DNA of 50,176 bases from Actinomycetes bacterium (GTDB lineage Bacteria; Actinomycetota; Acidimicrobiia; Acidimicrobiales; RAAP-2), in contig JAJYWF010000007.1 of NCBI GenBank assembly GCA_021791635.1, positions 1-50,176 on the forward strand, in the 5' to 3' direction. Under the pieces are notes generated by a model. The model was not told the DNA's origin. It made no database searches and was given only the letters and a program-made list of their open reading frames with translations. The translations under genes and the position numbers were made by a program. This document shows positions 26,847 through 42,342 of the stretch, piece by piece; the first letter of the stretch is position 1, and each line of letters starts with the position of its first letter.

Positions 26847-28223
26847 TCAGGCCCCCATGACGGAGCGGAACCTGCTCACGAGGGCGTCGAGCAGCGGAGG
26901 GGGAGCCGAGGCCGAGATGAAGAAGAAGTTCCGTCCGCCTTCGCCGTCGGGCGTGCAGTTCACCCGCAGGATGTCGCGATTGCCGGTGTGGACCCGGAAC
27001 CTACGCTGGCGCACCCCGGCGAGGTCCAGCCCTTCACGTTCGGCGAAGAGGTAGAAGGCGATGGTCGGTGGCGGTGGGGCATACCGGTCGACACCCGCCG
27101 CCTCGGCCTCGGCCAGAGGGGTCGGCACCACTCCGTGGGTCATGGCCGCTCGGAGCCCGGCCATCACCCGGGGAGACACGTCTTCGAGCGTGTCGCCAGG
27201 ATGGACCTCGGCCTTCAGTCGCACCGGCCCGACGAAGTTCCCGATCATGCCCCTAGTCACCGGCAGTCTCCGGCCCGATGCCGCCGACGTCACCACGAAG
27301 TGCTCGGCGCCTGCCACCTCGCACAGCGCCAACTCCAACCAGGACAGGACCACCACGTAGGGAAGGGTTCCCAGTGCCGGCGTCGACTCCACCAGTCGCT
27401 CCCACTCGTCACCCGGCACGTTGAAGAACCGGGTCACGCTCCTGTCGCCGGCGACGGTGGGCCAGGTGCCGGCCTCGGCAACGGCGGGGACTTCCTCCAC
27501 CCAGTAGCGTGCGGCCTGCTCCAGGACCGTCTCGGGCACAGGGTGCTCGAGGACGTAACGCAGGTAGCTGTCACCGCTGGGCGCAGGGAGGTCGGGAGCC
27601 GGGCGCCCGGCGTGAGCCGCGTAGGCCCGGGAGATCTCGGCGGCCACCAGCGTGCCCGAGTCACCGTCGACCGCCGCTTCGGCGACCCATACGGCCAGGA
27701 CGTTGGTCTTGGGGGCCACCAGGTACAGGTTGGCCTGGAGACGGGCGTCGTCCCATGGCGAGAGATCCTGGTACTCGATCTCGACGGCTCGGACAGCCGT
27801 GGTGAGGGCTTCGAGCTTGGGCCGGTCGTCGAGGGACACCACGTTCAGCACCCCGGGGCGGAACGGGGTGACGACCTGCACCGGGCCCCGGTCCCGGTTC
27901 ACGAAGCGCAGCCGGAGCATGTCGTGACGGGAGACCACGTCGTCGACAGCCCGAGCCAAGGCCTCCACGTCGAGACGGCCGTTGATCTGGTAGATCCAGC
28001 TCATGAACTCCCGGCTGGGGTTGAAGGCCGACATCAGCAGGGAGGACCGCTGGGTGGGCGTTGCCGGTGCCTCCAGATCACGGCCATCGGTCACCGGCTC
28101 GGTGGTGGACAGTCCGCCAGCTCCGGGAGCACGGCCGGCGGCGGCGGCGGCGTCAGAGTCGGCAGCGCCGGGAGCATCCGGGTCCGGACGCGCCGCGACG
28201 GTCCGTGGTGATGGGTGGCTCAC
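26847..28223 (-). CDS. Stand-alone condensation-domain-like protein with altered active site
   Basis: A 458-residue protein of the condensation/wax-ester acyltransferase superfamily. After a Pro/Ala-rich leader of about 45 residues come TPTQRSSLLMSAFNP, INGRLDVEALARAVDDVVSR and HDMLRLRF, the usual opening of condensation domains. At the HHxxxDG site it reads AEAAVDG (residues 181-187): Asp and Gly are kept, both His are replaced. Later segments, LPYVVVLSWLELALCEVAG and RGMIGNFVGPVRL, match the GNxxxxRV-type region. GTG 28223 is chosen because CAATAT stands six bases before it; GTG 28241 is possible. Without the histidines, condensation chemistry is doubtful; a binding or noncanonical role is possible. 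No NRPS genes are in view. Confidence 0.8.
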   Translation of the reverse strand: MSHPSPRTVAARPDPDAPGAADSDAAAAAGRAPGAGGLSTTEPVTDGRDLEAPATPTQRSSLLMSAFNPSREFMSWIYQINGRLDVEALARAVDDVVSRHDMLRLRFVNRDRGPVQVVTPFRPGVLNVVSLDDRPKLEALTTAVRAVEIEYQDLSPWDDARLQANLYLVAPKTNVLAVWVAEAAVDGDSGTLVAAEISRAYAAHAGRPAPDLPAPSGDSYLRYVLEHPVPETVLEQAARYWVEEVPAVAEAGTWPTVAGDRSVTRFFNVPGDEWERLVESTPALGTLPYVVVLSWLELALCEVAGAEHFVVTSAASGRRLPVTRGMIGNFVGPVRLKAEVHPGDTLEDVSPRVMAGLRAAMTHGVVPTPLAEAEAAGVDRYAPPPPTIAFYLFAEREGLDLAGVRQRRFRVHTGNRDILRVNCTPDGEGGRNFFFISASAPPPLLDALVSRFRSVMGA

Positions 28224-41358: not shown

Positions 41359-41607
41359 ATGTCTATGGATGCCACGGTGGTGCTCGGGCAGCAGGGACGA
41401 ATTGTCATCCCGGCCGACGTCCGAAGTGCGCTCGGGCTCGCCCCCGGGGACCGGCTACATCTCCACGTCGCTGGCCGGCGACTGGTCCTGGCGCGCCAGC
41501 AGGATGCAGTTGCGGAGCTCCGGGAACTGGCTCCCGCGGTCACCGAAGAACGGTCGCTCGTCGACGAGTTGCTGGCTGAACGCCGGCTGGCCGCGGCTGG
41601 CGCGTGA
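41359..41607 (+). CDS. vapB: AbrB/MazE-type antitoxin (VapB-like)
   Basis: An 82-residue DNA-binding antitoxin with the swapped-hairpin AbrB motif DATVVLGQQGRIVIPADVRS, then ALGLAPGDRLHLHVAGRRLV, and a C-terminal tail (ERSLVDELLAERRLAAAGA) of the kind that blocks the toxin. ATG 41359 or 41365 are both possible starts. Its stop overlaps the start of the toxin gene (GTGA), as in intact vapBC operons. The toxin gene is cut short, so this is an orphan antitoxin. Confidence 0.85.
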   Translation: MSMDATVVLGQQGRIVIPADVRSALGLAPGDRLHLHVAGRRLVLARQQDAVAELRELAPAVTEERSLVDELLAERRLAAAGA

Positions 41608-41738
41608 CGGTTCTGGACGCCTCGGCGGTCCTTGCCCTCATTCACGACGAGCCCGGCGCCGACGTGGTGGCCTCCGAGCTTGCTTCGAGCTCGCTCGGGA
41701 CCGCGAGCCTCGCTGAATTGACTTCCTCCCACGCCTGA
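41604..41738 (+). pseudogene. vapC: VapC-type PIN-domain toxin truncated by an IS end
   Basis: The frame starts at the GTG overlapping the antitoxin stop and reads 44 residues: the PIN opening VTVLDASAVLALIHDEPGAD with its first catalytic Asp at residue 5, then the TASLAEL segment where intact VapC proteins have the next conserved Glu. The native sequence ends at about 41717, after the codon for Glu39; the rest is from the mobile element, and the stop lies in the loop of its end hairpin. Intact VapC has about 130 residues, so the nuclease cannot fold. I found no continuation of the gene beyond the element. Confidence 0.8.
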
Positions 41739-41747
41739 AGGCGTGGG
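41728..41747. repeat. IS200/IS605 subterminal hairpin
   Basis: A perfect eight-base stem, CCCACGCC and GGCGTGGG, with a TGAA tetraloop, ten bases inside the element's right end. Such hairpins are read by the transposase and also form the end of the guide RNA of TnpB. Confidence 0.85.
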
Positions 41748-41760
41748 ATTCCCGACGGGC

Positions 41761-41970
41761 TCATGCTGCTGCCCGTCGGGTGGTTCGCGCTTCACCGGGT
41801 CCCCGTTGGGATGTCCCTCCACGCGCTGCGACCGCCAGCCCGGTGGCGAGGATGTTCTCGGCTGCGTTGATGTCCGCGTTGTCCTCGTGCCCACAGGCCC
41901 GGCATCGGAACACCACTTGGCTCTCACGGTTCTCCGGTGCGGTATGCCCGCTGAACCGTTCGGGCCAATA
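41761..41970 (-). pseudogene. tnpB: TnpB C-terminal fragment
   Basis: The minus-strand frame ends SGHTAPENRESQVVFRCRACG then HEDNADINAAENILATGLAV and an Arg-rich tail. This is the end of TnpB: the second CxxC of the zinc ribbon and the third RuvC acid (D in NADINAAENI). The first CxxC, expected just before GHTAPE, is missing; upstream of about 41970 the frame continues to 42054 with unrelated residues (YEKDHDGEGEDPSYWPERF). About 60 of the usual 350-420 residues remain, so it is inactive. Confidence 0.8.
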
Positions 41971-42054
41971 GCTCGGGTCTTCACCCTCACCGTCGTGGTC
42001 CTTCTCGTAGGGCGAGTCGACCGGGTGCTCATCGAGACTGCCCGTGCCCATCAT

Positions 42055-42342
42055 CCCGAAGATATCGAACCCACGAACGCTTCGGGATGCTCAGCCGGTG
42101 ATGCTCCGTCCATCGAACTGGGTGCGGCGAGCGAGGCCCCCTCGGGCATAAGCCAACAGCGGTGAATGGGGTCAGCTGGCGTAGCGGCCAGTGCTATTCG
42201 TCGGGCGTATCGCAACTACCGTCGGCCAGTACTCCGCTGTCGGTCAGGAAGCCACGACCGAGAGCCGGATGTCCTCGGTCTCTCGGCTCGACCGCCCCTG
42301 CGTGAAAAGGCGATGGCGCAGCGGACCTGACAGAGTTGATCC
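42055..42342. other. Stretch without a recognised gene
   Basis: About 290 bases between the tnpB remnant and the DJ-1 gene. Short open frames occur on both strands but none has recognisable residues, and I find neither the rest of vapC nor the other IS end. A hexamer AGAGTT (42332-42337) stands five bases before the GTG at 42343. Confidence 0.5.

What the first reader, a model, noticed from the sequence alone, without database searches (positions are those of the whole stretch)
41604..41970. VapC toxin gene cut by an IS200/IS605-type right end
The toxin frame is native up to its second conserved acid and then runs into TTGACTTCCTCCC and the 8-base end hairpin of a TnpB-bearing element. The antitoxin stays intact. 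Since TnpB guide RNAs take their guide from the DNA flanking the right end, any RNA still made from this end would carry vapC sequence as its guide. The partial tnpB cannot act, but another TnpB in the genome might use it.
Basis: partly seen in the sequence, partly recalled or inferred. Interest (0 to 1): 0.5.

Follow-up and report, generated by a model that had tools for sequence, protein, structure and literature searches.

The report
Broken vapC beside a decayed IS605 end
A jumping element of the IS200/IS605 (TnpB) kind landed in a bacterial toxin gene and then lost most of itself together with the rest of the toxin gene; the leftover end could still encode a guide RNA, but no suitable partner enzyme or target was found, so it looks like an ordinary genomic relic.

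Summary
Confirmed: the vapC frame (41604-41717) is native through codon 38 and meets, at 41717|41718, the right end (RE) of an IS200/IS605 TnpB element. Intact orthologues run on to 126 aa. The RE end (GTCAA or GTCAC behind a covarying hairpin) recurs in 15 of 18 relatives' ends; two copies in one genome diverge exactly after GTCAA. Five of seven left ends examined follow TGAC, the other two TTGAG and TTGAT; 8 of 24 close vapC alignments carry TGAC at exactly this codon. In the closest full-length relative, joining the flanks at TGAC restores a frame. An RNA model built without the window still finds an unbroken guide-RNA scaffold (98 bits) whose guide would be antisense vapC. Use in trans is unsupported: the one intact TnpB found is IS607-type, no second scaffold, targets at chance level. 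An IS insertion followed by deletion; ordinary, well resolved.

The parts
41365..41607 (+). vapB-type antitoxin, AbrB/MazE fold, intact (80 aa)
   Evidence: PF04014 E 7.3e-9; TIGR01439 E 8.3e-11; 82% and 78% identical to orthologues in G337 and G299, which lie beside intact vapC
41604..41717 (+). 5' part of vapC (38 codons, to the second conserved acid, E38)
   Evidence: 70-72% identity to intact vapC of G337 and G299; orthologues continue to codon 126
41718..41949 (-). remnant of an IS200/IS605 TnpB element: tnpB tail plus right end, terminal base at 41718
   Evidence: blastn 80% over 234 columns to the G100 element; right end shared by 15 of 18 relatives' ends
41728..41747 (-). right-end hairpin, 8-bp stem, 4-nt loop
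   Evidence: this helix: 5 of 8 pairs with changes on both sides in 12 sequences
41761..41949 (-). 3' end of tnpB (about the last 62 codons and stop), TNB zinc-finger part only
   Evidence: PF07282 E 2.7e-7; 64% protein identity to the G100 TnpB tail
41718..41835 (-). predicted guide-RNA (omega RNA / reRNA) scaffold
   Evidence: model R1 41718-41835, 126.9 bits (the window was in its training set); independent model R2 41718-41829, 98.1 bits, no broken pair; weak Rfam HgcC match E 0.0036, below gathering score
41698..41717 (-). predicted 20-nt guide stretch, antisense to vapC codons 32-38
   Evidence: directly 3' of the RE end; rule taken from ISDra2 reRNA (PMC8612924 passages); inference
41953..42036 (-). 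84-bp fragment of a GNAT acetyltransferase N-terminal part, joined to the tnpB tail at 41950-41952
   Evidence: 85% to G023:C27; the frame there is PF00583 E 2.1e-15
41761..42054 (-). in-frame chimeric ORF (GNAT fragment plus TnpB tail, 97 aa), read as chance

Best explanation
An IS200/IS605-family element carrying TnpB inserted into vapC on the minus strand, most likely behind a TGAC target (codons E38-V39-I40 of vapC), with its right end towards vapC's start. Later one or more deletions removed its left end, any tnpA and most of tnpB together with vapC's last 88 codons, and joined the tnpB tail to a fragment of a GNAT acetyltransferase gene. The remnant is inert as a transposon and as a nuclease, vapC lacks two of its four catalytic acids, and the lone antitoxin is harmless. 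The remnant still has the sequence and predicted fold of a complete guide-RNA scaffold followed by an antisense-vapC guide, but nothing shows that it is transcribed or used. Shown: boundaries, element family, intact orthologues, scaffold match, absence of the left half in the assembly. Inferred: the original target letters (that flank is lost), the number and order of deletions, the absence of function.
For: RE homology ends at 41718, vapC homology to G337 at the codon beside it. RE ending in GTCAA (10) or GTCAC (5) in 15 of 18 relatives' TnpB tails examined; two ends in G282 are identical up to GTCAA and differ after it. Left ends: TGAC in register in own C96, G100, G185, G285 and G318, 5 of 7 examined. 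In G100 the flanks joined at TGAC and the RE end give an open frame, element 1564 bp. 8 of 24 alignments at 60% identity or more have TGAC at this vapC codon. Own C96 carries a left end with a hairpin 19 of 20 identical and an IS200/IS605 tnpA (PF01797 E 2.8e-24). vapC 3' half not found in window or genome.
Against: The uninterrupted vapC of this strain or a close sister was not found, so the target is inferred from relatives; 16 of the 24 close alignments, and 69 of all 83, do not have TGAC there. Two of the seven left ends examined have TTGAG (G366) and TTGAT (G221) in that place, so the target is not uniform in the wider family. Read-level support for the junctions cannot be checked in this draft assembly. 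None of five neighbour genes of the window recurs in the 30 relatives' stretches tested, most of them with only about 1.5 kb of flank, so the ancestral gene order is unknown.
Confidence: 0.92

Rival explanations
1. The insertion is as described, but the right end still makes a guide RNA with a vapC guide, which a TnpB supplied in trans (from an unassembled copy or an incoming element) uses to cut DNA carrying TGAC plus this vapC stretch.
For: The scaffold matches its family at 98.1 bits with a model that did not include it, no broken pair; folding z-score -4.0. An IS200/IS605 tnpA of the matching family runs off the end of contig C96, so more of such an element may be unassembled.
Against: No intact IS200/IS605 TnpB found in the assembly (the full-length one is IS607-type). 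Targets in the genome are at chance level; none in viral contigs for an exact 18-mer; the 24 listed vapC alignments differ from the guide at 3-9 of 20 positions and the nearest lacks TGAC. No promoter-like site by a sigma-70 scan. No second genome with this junction was found, though only sampled genomes were searched.
Confidence: 0.04
2. Assembly chimera: the assembler joined a vapC contig, an IS fragment and a GNAT fragment that are not neighbours.
For: IS ends are classic misjoin points (general knowledge); several RE matches in relatives lie at contig ends; the region is a mosaic of gene pieces.
Against: The RE is single copy in this assembly, so no repeat is visible to misjoin on; the vapC|RE join falls on the end of the element seen in relatives and fits the target seen in its nearer relatives; G+C of the pieces is similar, 0.64-0.70.
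Confidence: 0.04
3. No insertion: vapC simply decayed and the similarity to a transposon end is coincidental.
For: A related vapBC in G255 is decayed by deletions, with no element seen.
Against: 80% nucleotide identity over 234 columns to a full-length element and a covarying hairpin with the family's end.
Confidence: 0.003

Closest known systems
IS200/IS605 family, tnpA+tnpB (IS605-type) elements; ISDra2 as the worked example
   Same: Subterminal hairpins, short target 5' of the left end, TnpB with TNB zinc finger, RE covered by a structured RNA whose 3' end reads into flanking DNA (ISDra2: about 150-nt reRNA with about 16 nt of flank, PMC8612924 passages)
   Different: Here only the last 232 bp are left; the likely target is TGAC, not ISDra2's TTGAT; no TnpA or active TnpB in the remnant
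VapBC type II toxin-antitoxin (PIN-domain toxin, AbrB-type antitoxin)
   Same: Gene order, 4-bp overlap, AbrB-like antitoxin, PIN N-terminus with first two acids
   Different: Toxin stops being native at codon 38 of 126; third and fourth acids lost (positions of the acids from general knowledge)
Right ends with shortened or missing tnpB in the same order
   Same: Right-end scaffold kept while tnpB homology in the 3 kb fetched is partial or absent, as in G318, G394 and G139
   Different: This one is flanked by vapC and joined to a GNAT fragment

Membership tests
IS200/IS605 TnpB element | TnpB of the family (TNB domain, guided TnpB) | tested here: met
   Tail only: PF07282 E 2.7e-7, over cut-off; NF040570 E 5.2e-6, below the whole-protein cut-off; closest full-length relative G100, 404 aa, NF040570 E 4.2e-70
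IS200/IS605 TnpB element | Subterminal hairpin and defined right end | tested here: met
IS200/IS605 TnpB element | Left end with hairpin, 3' of a short target | tested here: not met
   No left end beside the remnant: only 232 bp of element remain; left ends seen in relatives and in own contig C96. The window piece is filed as a remnant
IS200/IS605 TnpB element | Y1 TnpA transposase | tested here: not met
   None in the window; the single genome hit is C96. Often absent from TnpB elements (general knowledge)
IS200/IS605 TnpB element | Insertion without target duplication | tested here: inconclusive
   Left flank lost here; consistent in G100, where flanks joined at TGAC restore a frame
VapBC | PIN toxin with four conserved acids | tested here: not met
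   Only the first two remain (positions of the acids are general knowledge of PIN domains)
VapBC | Adjacent AbrB-type antitoxin | tested here: met
Active guide RNA (reRNA / omega RNA) | Conserved scaffold structure ending at the RE | tested here: met
   98.1 bits, E 8.6e-26, model without the window; Rfam matches stay below gathering scores
Active guide RNA (reRNA / omega RNA) | Transcribed and bound by TnpB | not testable with these tools
   No RNA data; no matching intact TnpB found in the assembly

The most novel reading that the evidence does not exclude
A deletion has cut a transposon down to a free-standing guide-RNA gene that carries an antisense-vapC guide, and TnpB supplied in trans by other elements uses it to cleave incoming vapBC-bearing DNA with TGAC plus the guide match: a self-made guard against a toxin module built from two dead genes.
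Probability: 0.03. Interest if true: 0.7.

Novelty: new member of a known kind. Interest (0 to 1): 0.2.

Why it matters
As a relic it documents one way a toxin gene is lost while its antitoxin is kept, and it gives clean right-end boundaries and a likely target (TGAC) for one group of TnpB elements in this order. If the leftover guide RNA were used, it would link transposon decay to RNA-guided control of a toxin-antitoxin locus; nothing found here supports that.

Tried and rejected
A copy of the vapC 3' half on the far side of the remnant or elsewhere: no significant match in the window and the two other genome hits are at E about 0.1, taken as noise. C96 as the missing left half of this very element: its outer flank was read as another gene, not vapC, so it is taken as a separate insertion. 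Hairpin matches elsewhere in the genome: C96 is the only other place with one mismatch; the total of 54 matches at up to 3 mismatches is near the reversed-pattern control of 47, and the rest were not examined. Exact RE pattern in genome contigs: nothing. Rfam: HgcC E 0.0036 and Transposase-2 E 0.15, both below gathering scores, taken only as a hint. Promoters and terminators: none by the scans, which are sigma-70-type and may not suit this organism. The PF07282 hit at C38 (E 8e-4, below cut-off) lies in a frame that by eye is a methyltransferase and was dropped. PADLOC hits are nearly all Cas12-type matches to the TnpB tail. Model R1 contains the window sequence, so R2 was built without it; R2 also gave a second window match at 27199-27236, 8.3 bits, E 0.83, taken as noise. 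Four of the 16 ends were left out of A1: one G282 copy as a duplicate, and G201, G096 and G185 by eye as more divergent, so the covariation and R1 lean to the rest. Of the three tails where my motif search saw no end, G285 is cut by the contig end, while G044:C8 and G131:C43 do give weaker R1 matches, so 'no end' there may only mean a diverged one. A first count of left ends used four hand-picked elements; on rechecking seven, two do not have TGAC, and a loose pattern hints at TTGAG in G044 too. Papers: passages of PMC8612924, PMC11701678 and PMC10278001; the others were seen as search listings only. Searches for a TGAC TAM and for standalone TnpB guides or remnants returned no paper, and vapC with IS605 one unread listing; this says little, since most subscription papers are not held.

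Full report
The observation. The window is a whole contig (C137) of an unnamed 2.46-Mb draft genome in 155 contigs. vapB at 41365-41607 is an intact AbrB/MazE-type antitoxin. vapC starts at 41604 and is native to GAA at 41715-41717; its frame then reads into TTGACTTCCTCCC and stops at 41738. The minus strand bears a tnpB tail with a TNB domain, E 2.7e-7, and an 8-bp hairpin at 41728-41747.

vapC without the insertion. A search of 397 genomes of the order with vapB gave 39 genomes with a match at E 1e-6, own genome included; two are close over nearly the whole length, G337 (82%) and G299 (78%), and a third, G255, matches over residues 34-77 (84%). G337 and G299 have 126-aa vapC genes directly behind vapB; the window is 70-72% identical to them over the first 39-44 codons, the last of which are already element. 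G255 has a related vapBC broken by deletions in both genes, with no element seen.

The right end. Of 18 TnpB tails from relatives, 15 show the same kind of end: GGA(A/T)(T/G)C, hairpin, then GAGGANGTCAA (10) or GTCAC (5) with small variations, then unrelated DNA. Of the other three, one is cut by the contig end and two lacked the motif, though the RNA model later matched both weakly. Two ends in G282 are identical up to GTCAA and differ from the next base on. Blast of the window with the G100 element aligns down to 41718 and no further. In a 12-sequence alignment 94.7% of cells pair and 13 of 24 pairs have changes on both sides; none of 500 shuffles reaches four of the five measures, 8 of 500 reach the fifth (further pair types), and slid controls pair at 35-50%; the structure was derived from the same alignment, which favours it. 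A model built without the window finds it at 98.1 bits, E 8.6e-26, with no broken pair.

The target. Seven left ends were examined by eye. In five (own C96, G100, G185, G285, G318) TGAC stands in the same register before the hairpin; G366 has TTGAG and G221 TTGAT there. For G100, the closest full-length relative, joining the flanks at TGAC and at the RE end gives a continuous frame reading VVTVYLVGAGPGDPGLITIKGAEVLG, a uroporphyrinogen methyltransferase-like start (family named from recall); the element is 1564 bp. The same joining in G185 gave no clear result. Read on the minus strand, 8 of 24 vapC alignments at 60% identity or more, and 14 of all 83 alignments, have TGAC exactly at the window's junction. 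The strain's own letters there are lost, so TGAC is an inference.

What is missing. tnpB homology begins at 41949; from 41953 to 42036 the minus strand matches (85%) the N-terminal part of a GNAT acetyltransferase in G023. The two pieces are in frame, giving a 97-aa ORF, read as chance. vapC's 3' half was not found in the window or elsewhere in the assembly. The simplest history is insertion, then a deletion that ran from inside tnpB across the left end and vapC's 3' half into a GNAT gene. Further rearrangements are possible: from 42037 to 42342 nothing was found in 172 genomes of the family except a 27-bp match in G002, and the two short frames tested there have no Pfam match.

Could the leftover work? 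[quoted passage not shown] The 232 bp kept here would hold such a scaffold, and the guide would begin UUCAGCGAGGCUCGCG. Against use: the only full-length TnpB found in the assembly is IS607-type; there is no R2 match in its locus or in C96; the RE is single copy; the 17-nt TAM-plus-guide pattern gives 11 matches at up to 3 mismatches, one of them the locus itself, against 11 for the reversed control; an exact 18-mer has none in viral contigs; and no promoter-like site was found by a sigma-70 scan. C96 ends inside a tnpA of the matching family, so an unassembled copy cannot be excluded.

How common. The scaffold model R1 matches in 43 of 397 genomes of the order, own and training genomes included (stricter filters and at most 8 candidates scored per genome). 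Twenty right ends from that list were fetched, chosen because one search had listed no TnpB tail there or only a short one. Nine of the twenty have about 3 kb upstream; among these nine, the best TnpB query is covered over 312-399 aa in four, 157 and 218 aa in two, 41 aa in two, and there is no match in one. Whether those frames are open, and their distance from the end, was not checked. The other eleven stop at contig ends and were not judged. The sample is biased towards truncated copies; it only shows that right ends with shortened or missing tnpB occur elsewhere.

Verdict. A decayed IS200/IS605 insertion in vapC, of low general interest.

Noticed in passing
G000:C96, 2660-3095 (L006, L100): Left end (TGAC, hairpin 19 of 20 identical to the window's right-end hairpin) and the first part of an IS200/IS605 tnpA that runs off the contig end; probably a second copy of the same family.
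   Followed up: partly
L002 242-1732 (G000:C143): Full-length IS607-type TnpB in the same genome (NF038280 E 2.8e-163), with a different 3' end from the window's element.
   Followed up: partly
window 41761-42054: GNAT acetyltransferase fragment joined in frame to the TnpB tail, making a 97-aa chimeric ORF.
   Followed up: yes
L025 (G255:C4 near 129066): A close vapBC relative decayed by separate deletions in vapB and vapC; by eye the vapC deletion starts about one codon before the place where the window's element sits.
   Followed up: partly
L244 (G394:C19:5600-9000): Right-end scaffold match with no TnpB match (E 0.01) in about 3 kb upstream, a possible right-end-only element.
   Followed up: no
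L097, L094, L098 (G318, G366, G221): Left ends of the wider family carry TTGAC, TTGAG and TTGAT in the same register, so the target seems to differ between subgroups with similar right ends.
   Followed up: no
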